Source: Promicromonospora sukumoe 327MFSha3.1 (GTDB taxonomy: Bacteria > Actinomycetota > Actinomycetes > Actinomycetales > Cellulomonadaceae). Taken from it: 64,000 bases of DNA. Under the pieces are notes generated by a model that was not told the origin of the DNA, made no database searches, and saw nothing but the letters and a program-made list of their open reading frames with translations. The translations under genes and the position numbers were made by a program. The stretch is taken from contig NZ_ARQM01000010.1 in assembly GCF_000385135.1 (NCBI RefSeq), positions 124,001 through 188,000 on the forward strand, written 5' to 3'. Positions 3,718-60,727 of the stretch are shown here, in pieces; the first letter of the stretch is position 1; each line of letters begins with the position of its first letter.

Positions 3718-3736
3718 CCAGGCGGACCTTGCCGGC

Positions 3737-3790
3737 GAACGTAGGCCTGGTCGCCTCATGAGGACTCATGAGGCGACCAGGCCTACGTTC
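3737..3790. repeat. Perfect 26-bp palindrome downstream of murA
   Basis: Arms 3737-3762 and 3765-3790 are exact reverse complements separated by only 2 nt. It sits between murA and plsC, both on the plus strand, and lacks a T-tract. It could end the murA transcript or be one of the dispersed palindromes seen across this window. Confidence 0.85.
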
Positions 3791-3825
3791 GGCCCCACCC
3801 GGCCAGGGAGGCGGGCTGGGCCGAG

Positions 3826-11019: not shown

Positions 11020-11091
11020 CCGACCCGCTGACCGAGCCGTAAGCGCTGGTCGAGCTTCGCTGGTCGAGCCTGCCCCGCTGGTCGAGCCTTC

Positions 11092-11141
11092 GCTGGCCGA
11101 GCTTGTCGAGACCTCACCCGGTCTCGACAAGCTCGACCAGC
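11092..11141. repeat. VELVET-type palindrome between the two beta-helix genes
   Basis: 22-nt arms (11092-11113, 11120-11141) with one mismatch and a 6-nt loop. Several partial direct copies of the ctggtcgagc half-site lie upstream (from about 11044) and ccgaccagcgggg copies downstream to 11168. Because it separates two tandem paralogues it may have helped the duplication or may attenuate transcription. Confidence 0.8.
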
Positions 11142-11236
11142 GGGGTGCCGACCAGCGGGGTGCCGACCAGCAGGTGCGGCTCGGACGGCGTGCGACACCT
11201 CGACAGACCACGTGTTCATCGACCGAGAGGACGACG

Positions 11237-13153: not shown

Positions 13154-13190
13154 CCGCTGGTCGAGCCGGCTCCGCTGGTCGAGCCCGCCC

Positions 13191-13240
13191 GCTGGTCGAG
13201 CTTGTCGAGACCTCACCAGGTCTCGACAAGCTCGACCAGC
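13191..13240. repeat. Perfect VELVET palindrome between convergent genes
   Basis: 23-nt exact arms (13191-13213, 13218-13240) around the loop CACC, flanked by further ctggtcgagc half-sites (13156-13190 and 13245-13258). It lies between the convergent beta-helix and GlxA-type regulator genes and may terminate both, though no T-tract is present. Confidence 0.85.
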
Positions 13241-13262
13241 GACGTCGCTCGACCAGCGTGCG

Positions 13263-15723: not shown

Positions 15724-15773
15724 CACGTGTCAGACCCACAGATCACCCGGGTGACCTGTGGGTCCGACACGTG
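15724..15773. repeat. Dispersed palindrome family A (CACGTGTCAGAC...), intergenic copy
   Basis: 25-nt arms (15724-15748, 15749-15773) meeting at CCCGGG with no loop and two mismatches. A related palindrome with the same TCACCCGGGTGACCTGTG core lies inside cydC at 49188-49233. Confidence 0.85.
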
Positions 15774-17041: not shown

Positions 17042-17070
17042 CCGGGCGCGGGAGGACGGTAAGACGTCGA

Positions 17071-17136
17071 GCGGTCGGCAGGATGTCAGGTGGTCGGCAA
17101 CTCGAGCTGCCGACCACCTGACATTCTGCCGACCAC
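17071..17136. repeat. Dispersed palindrome family B (GGTCGGCAG...GTCAGGTG), intergenic copy
   Basis: 33-nt arms (17071-17103, 17104-17136) with three mismatches, centred on CTCGAG. It lies between the convergent PLP and acyl-CoA dehydrogenase genes. A sister palindrome sharing GGTCGGCAG, GTCAGGTG and TCGG lies inside cydC at 48864-48925. Confidence 0.85.
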
Positions 17137-17168
17137 CCGGTTTCGCCCCGCCAGCGCCAGCGCCCCGG

Positions 17169-27861: not shown

Positions 27862-27919
27862 TCGGCACTTGGCATTGAGATCGGTCCAGGCCTGTGCCGA
27901 TCTCAATGCCAACTGCCGA
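27862..27919. repeat. Inverted repeat downstream of thiL
   Basis: 23-nt arms (27862-27884, 27897-27919) with one mismatch and a 12-nt loop. Its right arm runs into the 42-nt tandem array. A possible terminator for thiL without a T-tract. Confidence 0.8.
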
Positions 27920-36693: not shown

Positions 36694-37512
36694 GTGGCCA
36701 AGGGCGGGACGTCGCCGGCAAGGCCGGAACCTACCGCGCTGCTCGAGAAGCTCGGGGTCCATCTGGACCCCGAGCTTCTTGTGCTGGCACTGACCCACCG
36801 GTCGTTCGCACACGAGGCCGGGGGCATCCCCACCAACGAGCGCCTGGAGTTCCTGGGCGACACCGTGCTGGGGCTCGTGGTCACGGAGGCGCTGTACCGG
36901 CGTCACCCCGACCAGTCGGAGGGCGACCTGGCGCGCATGCGCGCCGCGACCGTGTCGCAGCGGGCGCTGGCCGCGGTGGCGCGGAACCTCGGCCTGGGCA
37001 AGTACGTGCTGCTCGGCAAGGGTGAGATCCGCACGCGCGGCTTCGAGAAGGACTCGATCCTGTCCGACACAGTCGAGGCGCTGATCGGCGCGACCTACCT
37101 GTCGCACGGCCTGGAGACCTCGCGCGCCCTGGTGCACCGGCTGGTGGACTCGACGCTCGACGTCGCCGCCGGGCTGGGCGCGGGCCTGGACTGGAAGACC
37201 TCCCTGCAGGAGGCCTCCGCCGAGCGCGGCCTCGGCTCGCCCGACTACATCGCCACGTTCGAGGGCCCGGAGCACGCGCGCGTGTTCCACTCGACCGTCG
37301 TGATCGACGGCGTCACCTACGGGTCCGGCTCGGGCACGGCGAAGAAGCACGCCGAGCAGGGCGCCGCCGAGGAGACCTACCGGGCCCTGCTGGAGAAGCT
37401 CCCGCTGCCCGGCGCGGACACCGACGGCAAGGCTGCTGACGGCAAGACTGCTGAGAACAAGGCTGCCGACGGCAAGTCCGCTGCGAGCAAGGCTCCGGCC
37501 GCCGGTGCCTGA
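36694..37512 (+). CDS. rnc: Ribonuclease III
   Basis: A 272-residue endonuclease for double-stranded RNA, acting in rRNA processing and decay. The signature [18 protein letters not shown] begins at residue 48, [17 protein letters not shown] gives the second acidic set, and a double-strand RNA-binding domain follows ([14 protein letters not shown] to [18 protein letters not shown]). The tail after residue 245 is a run of near-repeats of ADGKTAENK that is not part of the family fold. Its end overlaps mutM by 8 nt. Confidence 0.95.
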
Positions 37513-38560
37513 GCTGCCCGAGGTCGAGACCGTCCGCGACGGTCTCGACCGCCTGGTCGTCGGCGCGACGGTGCGCGACGTCGAGGTCTTCCGCGAGTAC
37601 AGCGTCCGCAGGCACGACGGCGGACCGGACTCCTTCCGCGACCAGCTCGCCGGGCGGCGGCTGGCGTCCGCGGTGCGCCGCGGCAAGTTCCTCTGGCTGC
37701 CGCTGGCGGAGTCCGGCCCGCGGCCCGAGCCCACCGCGCCGGCTGAGCCCACCCCGTTGGTCGAGCCTGTCGAGACCCGCCCGGCCGCCGCGCTGCTGGC
37801 GCACCTGGGTATGTCTGGCCAGCTCCTGGTGCGCGGTGCCACGGCGGGCGAGGACCCGGCGCAGTCCGCGCAGACCCCGGCCCCGTACGGCGCCGCCAGC
37901 CCCGAGGACAACTGGCAGCACCCGCACCTGCGGGTTCGCCTGCACCTGGAGGGCGCGCCGTCGGGCGCGCGGTACCTCGACTTCGTGGACCAACGCACGT
38001 TCGGGCACCTGAGCGTCCAGGACCTCGTGCCGGACGGCACGAGCGCGACCGTCCCCGCCGGGTACGGCTCCGACCTGCCCGTGCTGCCCGAGCCCGTGGC
38101 GCACATCGCCCGCGACCTGCTCGACCCGAACCTGGACCTGGACGCCCTGGTGAGCCGGGTCCGGCGTCGGCGGACACAGGTCAAGCGCGCCCTGCTCGAC
38201 CAGACCGTGGTGTCCGGCGTGGGCAACATCTACGCGGACGAGGCGCTGTGGCGGGCGCAGGTGCACTGGGCCCGGCCCACGGACAAGCTCAAGGCGGCGG
38301 ACGTGCGCCGCGTGCTCGACTCCTCGGCCGAGGTGATGCGCGAGGCGCTGGTCCAGGGCGGCACGAGCTTCGACGAGCTGTACGTCAACGTGAACGGGCA
38401 GTCGGGCTACTTCGACCGGTCGCTCGCCGTGTACGGGCGGGAGAACGAGGAGTGCCGCCGCTGCGGCGCGCTGGTGCGCCGGGACGCGTTCATGAACCGG
38501 TCGTCGTTCAGCTGCCCGGTCTGCCAGCGCCCCCCGCGCACCCCCGCTCCGCCGAAGTAG
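37505..38560 (+). CDS. mutM: Formamidopyrimidine-DNA glycosylase (Fpg/MutM)
   Basis: A base-excision enzyme for 8-oxoguanine. Translation from GTG 37505 gives [14 protein letters not shown], where the catalytic Pro follows Met; the H2TH region is [13 protein letters not shown] and the C-terminal zinc finger CRRCG...CPVCQ is intact. At 351 residues it is some 60 longer than usual. One insertion (about residues 72-93) contains [10 protein letters not shown], encoded by a half-site of the VELVET palindrome; another (residues 115-140) is Ala/Pro-rich. Confidence 0.95.
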
Positions 38561-38668
38561 AGCCAGGGCGAGACAGAACCAGGGCGAGACAGAACTCCAG
38601 CAGGCTCAGCTTCTACTTCGCCCTGGTTCTACTTCGCCACGGTTCTATCTCGCCCTGGTTCTACTTCG
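38553..38668. repeat. Nested inverted repeats between convergent mutM and hydroxyacid dehydrogenase
   Basis: Two copies of agggcgagacagaac on the left face three copies of the complementary ttctacttcgcc / ggttct motif on the right. The outer arms 38553-38578 and 38643-38668 pair over 26 nt with two mismatches, and inner pairs (about 38576-38595 with 38611-38630) allow alternative hairpins. The left outer arm covers the last codons of mutM. Likely a bidirectional terminator. Confidence 0.8.
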
Positions 38669-40686: not shown

Positions 40687-40699
40687 CAGTGATCTCCTC

Positions 40700-40860
40700 G
40701 GACGCCTACGAAGTGAGCTGTCGGGTTCGGATGGGGAGAGCAATCACCCGGCCTCACAAGGAGGCTTCACCCCGAGGACACTCGCGTGCCCGGCTTACCT
40801 GGTTCCCCCGCCCCTGTCACGGTTCTGGCTGCTCAGGACCGGTGACAGGGTTCGGCGTCC
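40700..40860 (-). ncRNA. c-di-AMP riboswitch (ydaO-yuaA type)
   Basis: Read on the minus strand, the leader contains the core blocks cgggggaacc, tcggggtgaa, gcctcc...gaggc, cgggtga and atccgaacccgacagct followed by cttcgtaggcg, the strongly conserved 3' part of the ydaO motif. The P1 stem is GGACGCC (40854-40860) pairing with GGCGTCC (40700-40706). GAGGAG (40694-40699) begins at the very next base after P1 and the GTG is at 40686, so ligand-stabilised P1 could bear on ribosome access. The family senses c-di-AMP and usually turns wall hydrolase genes off. Confidence 0.9.
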
Positions 40861-48157: not shown

Positions 48158-48199
48158 CGGCGGGGCGGGGCGGGGCGGGGCGCGCGCCGGCCGCCGGAC

Positions 48200-48254
48200 C
48201 GACCATGCACCTGCTGCCAGGCGGGTGTTCCGTCTGGCAGCAGGTGCATGGTCG
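48200..48254. terminator. Perfect 21-bp hairpin between kinase and cydC
   Basis: Exact arms 48200-48220 and 48234-48254 with a 13-nt loop between two convergent genes. No T-tract; a probable bidirectional terminator. Confidence 0.65.
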
Positions 48255-48275
48255 ATCGCTCATGGCTCCGGGCGG

Positions 48276-50279
48276 TCAGGCCTCCTGCGCCGCTGCCCAG
48301 GCGTAGGCCGGGTCCGTGGCGAGGAGGTCCTCGTGCCGGCCGCGGGCCACGACGGTCGCGGGGGAGCCGGAGGGCCCCGGGATCCCGGACACCCCGGGCG
48401 TTCCGGACCTTCCGGGGTCGCCGACGTCGCCCCGGGCGCCGTCGGCCAGGAGCAGCACCTCGTCCGCGACGGCCAGCGGCGTGAGCCGGTGCGTGGCTAC
48501 GAGCACCGCGCGTCCCGTCGCGCGGGCGTGGGCGGCGACGGCGTGCACCAGCGCGTCGGCGGTCTGCCCGTCGAGGTGCTCGGCGGGCTCGTCCACGAGC
48601 AGCACCCGGGCGGGCGCCAGCAGCGCGCGTGCCACCAGCAGCCGACGGCGCTCGCCGCCCGACACCGCCGCGGCGTCCGTGCCGACCACGGTGTCCAGGC
48701 CCGCGGGGAGCGCGTCGAGCCAGTCGCCCAGCCCGACGGCGTCCAGCGCCGCACGAGCCTCGTCGGGCGTGACGTCGCCGCGCGCGACCCGGAGGTTCTC
48801 GAGCACGGTCGTGTCGAACAGATGCCCGTCCTCGGCGACGAACAGGGCGTCCCCGACCCGCTCGGTCGGCAGTCCGTCAGGTGATCGGTGGTCCGGGCCG
48901 CCGATCACCTGTCGGACTGCCGACCGTCCGCCGACGGCGCCGGCCAGCGAACCGATCAGCCCGGCCGCCGTCATCAGCAGCGTGGTCTTGCCCACCCCGG
49001 ACGCTCCCGCCAGCGCGACGACGGATCCCGGCCGCAGCGTGAGGGACACCCCTTCGACGGCCACGACCGGCCCGTCCGCACCGGGCCAGCCCGCCGCGAC
49101 GTCGTCGAGGGTGAGCAGCGCGGCGTCGTCACCAGAGCCGTCACCAGAACCGTCGGCGCCCGCGTCGTCCGTGCCGAGCACACTCGCCGTGTCGGACGTA
49201 CGGATCACCCGGGTGACCTGTGTGTCTGACACGTCCGGCGGGTCCGCGGGGAGCAGCGCCAGCAGCCGCCGCGCGGCCTCACGCGACCGGTGCAGCTGCA
49301 CCGCCGCGGCGGGCAGCCCCGCGGTCGCCTCGAACACGGCGAGCGGCGTCAGCACGATCACTGTCAGCGCCTCGGGCGACAGCGTGCCCGACAGCGCCGC
49401 CGGGATCCCGAACGCCAGCGCCGCGAGCACCGCCAGACCCTGGGCCAGCGCGCCCAGGGCGGCGGCCAGCCCGGAGGTGCGGGCGCCGTCGTCGGCGATC
49501 GCGGACAGGCGCGCGTCCGCGGCGTCCAGGTCACCCAGCCGCGCGCCGAACCGTCCCGCGACCCGCAGCGGCGCCGACTCCTCCAGGATCTCCAGCGACA
49601 ACGCCGTCACCTCGCCACGGGCCGCCGCGCCCCGCGCCTCCGTGCGGGCCGCCGCCCGCGCCGCGAGCCACGGCGTCACGACGCCCGCGAGCACCAGGCA
49701 GACCGCCAGCGCGAGGCCCGCGGACGGCAGCAGCACGCCCAGCAGGATCACCGACCCCAGCGACGTCACCACCGCGACCCCGGCGGGCACCATCGCGCGC
49801 ACCACCACGTCGCCGACGTCGTCCACGTCCTGGCCGATCCGCGCCAGGAGCTCGCCGCGCCGCACCGTGACCGGCCGGTCGTCGGCGGCGAGCCGCTCGT
49901 ACAGGTTGGCGCGCAGGGCCGCCATCCCGCGGAGCGCGACGTCGTGCGAGGCGAGGCGCTCGCAGTAGCGCAGCACGCCGCGCCCGATGCCGAACGCCCG
50001 CACCGACACCACGGCCACCGACAGCGTGAGCACCGGCGGCATCTGCGACGCCCGGGCGACGAGCCAGGCGGCGACCGCCGCGAGCCCGATCGCGCAGGTC
50101 AGCGCCAGCGTGCCGAGCGCGATCGCGGCCGCGACCTTGCCCGGCCGCACCTCCAGCAGGGGCAGGATGCGCCGCAGCGGGTCGGGTCCGGAGTAGCGGC
50201 GCGCACGGCGGGCGTCACGGTGCGGCACGGGCGCGGACGCCGCCGCCCGTTCCGGCTCCCGGGTCACCTGGTCGTTCAT
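48276..50279 (-). CDS. cydC: Thiol reductant ABC exporter subunit CydC
   Basis: CydDC exports cysteine/glutathione-type thiols or binds heme and is required for cytochrome bd assembly. This 667-residue half-transporter has a six-helix membrane domain, then an ATPase with Walker A AGASGVGKTTLL (near residue 421), VAEDGHLFDTTVLENL (Q-loop region), AVSGGERRRLLVARALL (signature), VLLVDEPAEHLD (Walker B) and ATHRL. Two stretches are encoded by palindromes: DVSDTQVTRVIRTSDTAS in the linker and VRQVIGGPDHRSPDGLPTER between Walker A and the Q-loop. The ATG overlaps cydD by 4 nt. Confidence 0.93.
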   Translation of the reverse strand: MNDQVTREPERAAASAPVPHRDARRARRYSGPDPLRRILPLLEVRPGKVAAAIALGTLALTCAIGLAAVAAWLVARASQMPPVLTLSVAVVSVRAFGIGRGVLRYCERLASHDVALRGMAALRANLYERLAADDRPVTVRRGELLARIGQDVDDVGDVVVRAMVPAGVAVVTSLGSVILLGVLLPSAGLALAVCLVLAGVVTPWLAARAAARTEARGAAARGEVTALSLEILEESAPLRVAGRFGARLGDLDAADARLSAIADDGARTSGLAAALGALAQGLAVLAALAFGIPAALSGTLSPEALTVIVLTPLAVFEATAGLPAAAVQLHRSREAARRLLALLPADPPDVSDTQVTRVIRTSDTASVLGTDDAGADGSGDGSGDDAALLTLDDVAAGWPGADGPVVAVEGVSLTLRPGSVVALAGASGVGKTTLLMTAAGLIGSLAGAVGGRSAVRQVIGGPDHRSPDGLPTERVGDALFVAEDGHLFDTTVLENLRVARGDVTPDEARAALDAVGLGDWLDALPAGLDTVVGTDAAAVSGGERRRLLVARALLAPARVLLVDEPAEHLDGQTADALVHAVAAHARATGRAVLVATHRLTPLAVADEVLLLADGARGDVGDPGRSGTPGVSGIPGPSGSPATVVARGRHEDLLATDPAYAWAAAQEA
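48864..48925. repeat. Intragenic palindrome family B in cydC
   Basis: 25-nt arms (48864-48888, 48901-48925) with one mismatch and a 12-nt loop, within the coding region of the ATPase domain (about residues 452-472). It shares GGTCGGCAG, GTCAGGTG and TCGG with the intergenic palindrome at 17071-17136. Confidence 0.85.
49188..49233. repeat. Intragenic palindrome family A in cydC
   Basis: 23-nt arms (49188-49210, 49211-49233) meeting at CCCGGG with about five mismatches, in the linker between membrane and ATPase domains (about residues 349-364). It shares its TCACCCGGGTGACCTGTG core and the GTCNGACACG ends with the intergenic copy at 15724-15773. Confidence 0.85.
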
Positions 50280-60591: not shown

Positions 60592-60621
60592 GTGTAGTCG
60601 GCCGCGGAAGTGTGTTCGCAC

Positions 60622-60672
60622 GGGGAGGGGTAACGGAGACGTAGCAGCGTTCACTCTCCGTTACCCCTCCCC
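60622..60672. repeat. Perfect 18-bp hairpin downstream of acyltransferase
   Basis: Exact arms ggggaggggtaacggaga (60622-60639) and its complement (60655-60672) with a 15-nt loop. It lies between two plus-strand genes, ahead of thymidine kinase; no T-tract. Confidence 0.8.
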
Positions 60673-60727
60673 ATGCGTCTCGCTCATCTCCCGGCCGGGT
60701 GGGCGTCAGGATGCTTGACTGGCGCCT

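What the first reader, a model, noticed from the sequence alone, without database searches (positions are those of the whole stretch)
48864..49233. Two dispersed palindrome families inserted in frame inside cydC
Seen: a 25-bp near-perfect inverted repeat in the ATPase domain and a 23-bp one in the linker of cydC. Each has an intergenic sister in this window (family B at 17071-17136, family A at 15724-15773) sharing its core sequence. Known: Rickettsia palindromic elements can enter coding genes in frame at tolerant surface loops. Inference: this genome may carry a mobile or copy-spreading palindromic element that adds peptides such as DVSDTQVTRV to proteins, here in an essential cytochrome bd assembly exporter.
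Basis: partly seen in the sequence, partly recalled or inferred. Interest (0 to 1): 0.7.

Follow-up and report, generated by a model that had tools for sequence, protein, structure and literature searches.

The report
Hairpin DNA repeats inside bacterial proteins
In the soil bacterium Promicromonospora, several families of short mirror-image DNA repeats that mostly sit just behind genes have also entered genes without breaking them, including a cytochrome-assembly transporter gene; related species keep, lack or swap such inserts.

Summary
cydC (window 48276-50279, minus strand) carries two in-frame copies of dispersed palindromes: B (62 bp, residues ~452-473, ATPase domain) and A (46 bp, residues 349-364, linker). 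Both families are multicopy in this Promicromonospora genome and nearly confined to the genus. B is in 9 and A in 8 of 12 Promicromonospora CydC; 0 of 7 outgroup CydC have either. An 800-kb sample (13% of the genome) holds about ten such families, mostly at gene 3' ends, plus about 37 in-gene hits (26 of family E, mostly half-elements). In one GH39 enzyme loop, orthologues carry family E, family A or nothing. In-gene copies lose codon periodicity (third positions conserved, protein letters drifting), and the cydC B arms covary. No Y1 (RAYT/IS200-type) transposase, GTAG/CGTC tag, U-tract or consistent target duplication was found; other transposases were not sought, so how they spread is unknown. 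It works like Rickettsia palindromic elements and intragenic REPs but fails defining features of each. Verdict: real; a new variant of a known kind. Mobility and function are inferred.

The parts
48276..50279 (-). cydC, 667 aa, ABC exporter subunit for cytochrome bd assembly; host gene of both inserts
   Evidence: Pfam ABC_tran above cut-off, ABC_membrane below its cut-off; solved CydC homologue
48864..48925 (-). Family B palindrome, 62 bp, in frame in the ATPase domain, residues ~452-473 (RSAVRQVIGGPDHRSPDGLPT)
   Evidence: exactly 62 bp in 8 of 9 species that carry it, 53 bp in the ninth
49188..49233 (-). Family A palindrome, 46 bp, in frame in the linker, residues 349-364 (DVSDTQVTRVIRTSDT)
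15724..15773 (.). Intergenic family A copy between tandem genes
   Evidence: family A also at the orthologous site of G010
17068..17139 (.). Intergenic family B copy between convergent genes
   Evidence: family B also at the orthologous site of G010
48197..48257 (.). Family C palindrome between convergent genes just behind cydC (2 copies in the 800-kb sample)
3736..3791 (.). Family J palindrome, intergenic; the orthologous site in G010 holds a family A element instead
11073..11160 (.). Family E palindrome, intergenic (tandem genes)
13173..13258 (.). Family E palindrome between convergent genes
27862..27919 (.). Family D palindrome between convergent genes
38553..38652 (.). Family F inverted repeats behind a gene; no element called at the site in G010
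60617..60677 (.). Family K palindrome (2 copies in the 800-kb sample), intergenic
37748..37778 (+). Family E half-element in frame in another gene of the window (ORF about 37505-38560, residues 82-92, [11 protein letters not shown])
   Evidence: E 6e-5; also present in the G010 orthologue

Best explanation
The two palindromes are in-frame copies of two of about ten dispersed hairpin-repeat families of Promicromonospora. Shown: the families are multicopy, mostly lie just behind gene 3' ends, and also occur inside unrelated enzymes in regions that some relatives lack; A and B are in CydC only within the genus, in low-confidence segments of the model; one GH39 loop carries different families in different species; in-gene copies evolve without codon periodicity. 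Inferred: copies arise by an unidentified copying process (for example template-switch or repair copying of hairpin DNA, or a transposase of a kind not sought here). Copies in genes survive selection only where the length keeps the frame, the reading frame has no stop and the loop tolerates roughly 10-28 extra residues. Afterwards the hairpin is kept at nucleic-acid level, by arm-to-arm correction, by re-copying from other family members, or by selection on the mRNA hairpin. The encoded peptide is probably a tolerated by-product.
For: Copies: A strict pattern 82 in own genome, 164 in G010, 64 in G008, 0-21 in the other ten genus genomes, control 0; B arm pattern 16+20 own, 0 in five of the 13 genus genomes. 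Placement: 46 convergent, 60 tandem, 4 divergent against 72/240/119 gaps, chi-square 64.5. CydC presence/absence and tree. Families A and E in one GH39 loop, empty in two species. M20 peptidase: two J elements, 41 codons in all, wholly absent in G010. Codon positions 1/2/3 in CydC B: 0.231/0.182/0.168 inside against 0.079/0.062/0.296 in the rest; seven non-E inserts pooled: 0.227/0.125/0.164 against 0.065/0.056/0.229. Covariation score 0.149 against 0.085 shuffled, 0 of 500; 8 double-change cells against about 1 in independent-drift simulation, 0 of 150 in each of two models. The same columns vary in 17 other copies of the own genome, Spearman 0.53-0.56. Low-confidence model segments.
Against: No Y1 transposase and no consistent target duplication. 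Most elements are old: 35 of 44 intergenic and 15 of 22 genic own elements with a mappable G010 site have the same family there by a lenient call (one of the 15 is a false positive and some family E cases match only loosely), so recent mobility is rare. Maintenance is not clear-cut: the number of pairs with changes on both sides is reached by 42 of 500 shuffles and the tool warns that related sequences can exceed shuffles; the percentage of paired cells is reached by 12 and 10 of 150 drift simulations; family A copies in genes pair less well (19, 18, 15 and 17 of 20 pairs) than intergenic ones (91.5%). Replacement by other variants could mimic maintenance. Tree support near L120 and L121 is weak, so gain against loss of B is open. 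In-gene copies come from an ad hoc gene caller, where open frames are partly by construction; 21 of 27 family E gene hits are 45 bp or shorter.
Confidence: 0.85

Rival explanations
1. The palindromes are ordinary intrinsic terminators that arose or duplicated behind genes, and the cydC copies are internal terminators or attenuators of cydC.
For: Strong 3'-end placement, few in divergent gaps; -53.5 kcal/mol hairpin in the cydC mRNA.
Against: No U-tract: 4 or more T in the next 8 nt in 7 of 138 against 18 of 431 control places. The B element lies deep inside an open conserved gene in 9 species, where a strong terminator would be costly. Sequence identity between copies shows copying, not convergence. 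Terminators without U-tract are not excluded.
Confidence: 0.2
2. The in-gene hairpins are selected because the mRNA hairpin does something in the coding sequence (pausing, stability, attenuation), so they are functional RNA elements.
For: Third positions more conserved than first positions, and covariation, in CydC B; the same columns conserved as in other copies.
Against: Present in unrelated enzymes, absent in L120 and L121, another family in GH39 of other species; arm correction or re-copying explains the same pattern without function; in-gene A copies are more eroded.
Confidence: 0.2
3. The segments are just fast-evolving, low-complexity linkers with chance palindromy.
For: The linker is variable and another CydC loop (residues 615-637) also drifts; the A copy alone folds only slightly better than shuffles.
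Against: Sequence identity with many other copies; fold z -10.4 for B; nearly fixed 62-bp length.
Confidence: 0.02

Closest known systems
Rickettsia palindromic elements (RPE) and Wolbachia palindromic elements
   Same: Several coexisting palindromic families, found between genes and in frame inside unrelated genes, in solvent-exposed regions; orthologues may hold different groups near one site (PMC3767692 and PMC10969869, passages read).
   Different: Here 40-103 bp, family medians 48-71 bp, not 100-150 bp; a high-GC actinobacterium; RPEs are reported to lose arm identity with time (PMC6649704, passage read), whereas the CydC B arms covary. Kinship in sequence was not tested.
REPs (GTAG and CGTC super-families) and intragenic REPs
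   Same: Behind gene 3' ends, between convergent or unidirectional genes, some inside coding genes; family sizes differ between species (PMC3733652, passages read).
   Different: No GTAG or CGTC tag clearly above background, longer palindromes, no Y1 transposase. The phyla named in the passages read do not include Actinobacteria.
Enterobacterial RU/ERIC-type intragenic MITEs
   Same: Small repeats found between genes and fused into genes (PMC2759123, abstract read).
   Different: Those are 103-168 bp; here mostly shorter full palindromes without consistent target duplication.
Coding palindromes of Nematomorpha mitochondria
   Same: Inverted repeats maintained inside coding sequence; repeat conversion or template switching discussed (PMC6649704, abstract and passages read).
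   Different: Those arms encode conserved protein; here the arms encode extra, poorly conserved residues and belong to dispersed families.
Stem-loop sequence families surveyed in bacterial genomes
   Same: Families of repeated hairpins, preferentially intergenic (PMC2267715, passages read; it includes Corynebacterium and two Mycobacterium genomes).
   Different: That survey reports families inside coding sequences to be often unstructured; here in-gene copies keep strong hairpins.

Membership tests
Rickettsia palindromic elements | Same repeat family both intergenic and in frame within unrelated genes | tested here: met
Rickettsia palindromic elements | Orthologues in relatives lack the inserted segment | tested here: met
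   CydC; amine oxidase and GH39 variable within the genus; M20 peptidase:
Rickettsia palindromic elements | Length of about 100-150 bp | tested here: not met
   family medians 48-71 bp
Rickettsia palindromic elements | Sequence kinship with RPE/WPE consensus | not tested
   no RPE sequence was fetched
Rickettsia palindromic elements | Arms decay after insertion into a gene | tested here: inconclusive
   B covariation exceeds shuffles and drift simulation, but paired percentage is within reach of drift, in-gene A copies are more eroded, and replacement of copies could mimic maintenance
GTAG/CGTC REP | Unpaired GTAG or CGTC tag at one end of a 20-40 bp palindrome | tested here: not met
   GTAG at 4 of 127 (3.1%) and CGTC at 7 of 127 (5.5%) elements; random places 1.9% and 12.1%
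GTAG/CGTC REP | RAYT (Y1) transposase in the genome (GTAG type) | tested here: not met
   PF01797: 0 of 13 genus genomes; control rings in 5 of 14
GTAG/CGTC REP | Location at gene 3' ends, few between divergent genes | tested here: met
MITE | Target-site duplication | tested here: inconclusive
   no consistent direct repeats in 8 families; one clean empty site is flanked by a 4-bp CCGC repeat
MITE | Terminal inverted repeats shared with an autonomous IS | not tested
   no transposase search was made except PF01797
Intrinsic terminator | Hairpin followed by a U-tract | tested here: not met
   7 of 138 against 18 of 431 controls

The most novel reading that the evidence does not exclude
Promicromonospora carries about ten coexisting palindrome families that enter, and replace one another in, the same protein loops, and whose hairpins are actively maintained inside open reading frames at nucleic-acid level for much of the age of the genus, by a copying or correction process that does not use a Y1-type transposase. 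Coding genes would then host self-perpetuating hairpins and not just decaying insertions.
Probability: 0.35. Interest if true: 0.8.

Novelty: new variant of a known kind. Interest (0 to 1): 0.62.

Why it matters
Protein-coding palindromes are best known from Rickettsia and Wolbachia. A high-GC actinobacterial genus with many families, 12 other held species genomes, intergenic sisters, empty sites and different families in one loop makes two old questions testable: how such elements spread without a visible RAYT-type transposase, and whether hairpins inside genes decay or are maintained. It also warns that indels and 'species-specific' linkers in this genus can be repeat insertions.

Tried and rejected
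Rejected: chance palindromy. Rejected: canonical U-tract terminators. Rejected: RAYT/IS200-borne REPs and GTAG/CGTC tags. Rejected as proof of mobility: target-site duplications (only one neat case). Rfam has no family at gathering score for the palindromes of the window: the only window hit was a c-di-AMP riboswitch. Families C and K were not followed beyond listing. The family E hit at G000:C11:325146-325209 proved to be ordinary conserved protein, identical in G010, so 37 and not 38 of the 154 nhmmer hits are taken as in-gene; 21 of the 27 E gene hits are 45 bp or shorter, with E-values up to 5e-3, and some may be chance. Rows dropped: in the CydC alignment, duplicate or partial loci (L053, L124, L126-L128, L139 and the named twins of the genus loci) were left out; in the amine oxidase and GH39 alignments partial hits and paralogues (L194-L197, L209-L212) were left out; the pooled codon test leaves out family E inserts and inserts absent in G010. 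The CydC tree did not settle whether L120 and L121 lost B or never had it. Ogata 2002 (PMC186582) is not held; Ogata 2000 and Claverie and Ogata 2003 are known only through other papers. In the rows listed by searches for such elements in Actinobacteria or Promicromonospora or by name (some lists were cut) no title or start of abstract describes them; the library lacks most subscription journals.

Full report
What is there. cydC lies at window 48276-50279 on the minus strand. Its kin place the genome in Promicromonospora: the best named relatives are Promicromonospora species, and the window is G000:C10:124001-188000 of a 6.25-Mb assembly in 18 contigs. The two inverted repeats are at 48863-48926 (32-nt arms, 91% complementary) and 49188-49233 (26-nt overlapping arms, 81%), on residues 452-473 and 349-364.

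Both families are dispersed. The A core matches 60 times forward and 55 times reverse in the whole genome with up to 3 mismatches; because the core is palindromic many places count on both strands; the reversed-pattern control gives 0. A B pattern gives 7 forward and 6 reverse matches, control 0. Over 150 genomes of the family, the strict A pattern is found in 16, of which 11 are Promicromonospora: own 82, G010 164, G008 64, G005 21, G004 20, G011 14, the other seven genus genomes 0-5; the five genomes of other genera have 1-14 matches with a different middle. The B arm pattern is found in 9 of 150: eight Promicromonospora and one single hit elsewhere. So the copy numbers rise and fall between close species.

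They are not alone. In 800 kb of the genome, 127 hairpins score 16 or more, against none in one simulated sequence per 400 kb; 105 of 127 fall into eleven key-word families, here called A to K, two of them (C, K) with 2 copies each. With an ad hoc gene caller, 46 lie between convergent genes, 60 between tandem genes, 4 between divergent genes, 10 in genes and 7 across a gene end; gaps of 50 bp or more number 72, 240 and 119, chi-square 64.5. They sit behind genes like REPs. A U-tract is not enriched (7 of 138 against 18 of 431).

Presence and absence in CydC. The alignment holds 12 Promicromonospora CydC (the window's and 11 loci; P. citrea as a fragment that spans both sites) and 7 outgroup CydC out of the 69 loci, of which 16 were inspected. 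B is present in 9 of 12 and A in 8 of 12 (A judged by eye, eroded in L115, L120, L121 and L123); neither is in any of the 7. Three outgroup rows (L051, L057, L058) have a different segment of about 13 residues at the B site, as other ABC proteins do, so B sits in a loop that is short in Promicromonospora and Isoptericola. G004 (83% complete) gave no CydC. On a tree built without the insert columns, A needs 2 changes and B 3; P. citrea, which lacks both, branches first in the genus, but the forks around L120 and L121, which lack B, are weak. The solved CydC 8ipq (recalled to be mycobacterial; the call does not name the organism) has neither segment in the alignment. AlphaFold (mean pLDDT 69.3, pTM 0.44, 14 sequences) puts 346-384 and 453-475 under pLDDT 50; the second holds two short predicted strands, so 'disordered' is not shown. 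In L122 (G010) the A segment is present three times in tandem.

Other proteins. A search with nine family models finds 154 elements in the 800 kb, 38 of them in 26 genes: E 27, A 4, G 3, J 2, B 1, D 1; one E hit is false. An open frame is partly by construction here, so orthologues matter. Ten of the 26 host proteins were scanned with Pfam: CydC, an M20 peptidase, a xanthine-oxidase-like protein, an amine oxidase, an Ada/AlkA protein, a molybdopterin oxidoreductase, a tetrapyrrole methylase, an MPAB/Lcp-type protein, a GH39 enzyme and an ABC transporter. In the amine oxidase, the G element is in 7 of 11 genus sequences compared and absent or reduced in 4. In the GH39 enzyme the same loop holds family E (own, L200, L205), family A (L199, L202, L203, L204, the last two eroded), E-like remnants (L201, L206) or nothing (L207, L208), 11 sequences in all. 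In the M20 peptidase two J elements, 21 and 20 codons, are wholly absent in G010.

Turnover. Of 85 own elements in two regions syntenic with G010, 58 are intergenic: same family 35, other family 4, none 5, no mappable site 14; 27 are in genes: same 15 (one false, some E cases loose), none 7, no site 5. 'Same' only asks for a family hit between the mapped flanks. One clean empty site (G000:C11:329454-329499) is flanked by a 4-bp CCGC direct repeat, but no family of the eight tested shows consistent flanking repeats. PF01797 is absent from 13 of 13 genus genomes; other transposases were not sought.

Nucleic-acid conservation inside genes. In the 8 CydC B copies of exactly 62 bp (L123, 53 bp, was left out), pairwise differences at codon positions 1, 2, 3 are 0.231, 0.182, 0.168, against 0.079, 0.062, 0.296 in the rest of CydC; among 10 of 511 windows whose protein varies as much, the lowest third-position value is 0.409. 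Seven non-E in-gene inserts compared between own and G010, two of them in cydC, give 0.227, 0.125, 0.164 against 0.065, 0.056, 0.229 outside. The B arms covary: score 0.149 against 0.085, 0 of 500 shuffles; 91% of cells paired, 3 of 500; further pair types 10 against 7.2, 4 of 500; but pairs with changes on both sides 5 against 3.1, 42 of 500. Simulated independent drift from a perfect palindrome, tuned to the insert's own divergence, reaches 91% pairing in 12 and 10 of 150 runs, but the 8 double-change cells in 0 of 150 in each of two models. The columns that vary in CydC are those that vary between 17 other copies of the own genome (Spearman 0.53-0.56; 0 of 49 circular shifts as high; not every one of the 17 was checked to be intergenic). 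In 27 intergenic A copies 91.5% of cells pair against 86.6% when shuffled, maximum of 1000 shuffles 88.7%. The four real in-gene A copies pair at 19, 18, 15 and 17 of 20 positions, that is less well, which speaks against strict maintenance of A.

Reading. The elements enter genes in frame, stay where a loop tolerates them, and at least B keeps its hairpin. Whether by arm correction, re-copying from other family members or selection is open; the GH39 loop shows that different families can occupy one place, so covariation cannot be read as proof of selection.

Known kinds. RPEs are 100-150 bp and in frame in exposed regions (PMC3767692, PMC10969869, passages); REPs lie behind genes and sometimes inside them (PMC3733652, passages); a survey of stem-loop families, with three actinobacterial genomes in the table seen, found families in coding sequence to be often unstructured (PMC2267715, passages); RPEs are said to lose arm identity (PMC6649704, passages). 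The present elements work like RPEs and REPs but fail the length, tag and Y1-transposase tests. No held paper prints any of five repeat words, and the searches named in Tried and rejected listed no description of this in Actinobacteria.

Scores. Real and broader than the finding; interest 0.62; a new variant of a known kind.

Noticed in passing
window 40688-40840 (-): c-di-AMP riboswitch (Rfam RF00379, 65.6 bits).
   Followed up: no
window 48360-48446 (cydC residues 612-640): A third variable, Gly/Pro/Ser-rich loop in CydC; part of it (615-637) has low model confidence; much longer in L122.
   Followed up: no
G000:C10:375615-376336 (L161): Six family J palindromes in a row at about 129-135-bp spacing, a possible tandem array.
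   Followed up: no
L122, linker of cydC (G010): Three tandem family A segments, apparently a tandem duplication of an element with its flank.
   Followed up: partly
G017 contigs C12, C14, C15, C21, C67 (another genus of the family): GTGTCAGAC...GTCTGACAC ends with a different GC-rich middle, 14 matches, some in close pairs; may be a relative of family A or an unrelated operator-like repeat.
   Followed up: no
G035, G154, G266: Family E word GGTCGAGCTTGTCGAGACC also occurs in three genomes of other genera (24, 5 and 2 matches) out of 197 others of the order; several of the G035 matches are close together.
   Followed up: no
L116, cydC B site: The B element is preceded by two extra short copies of its first bases, as if the start of the arm had been duplicated in tandem.
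   Followed up: no
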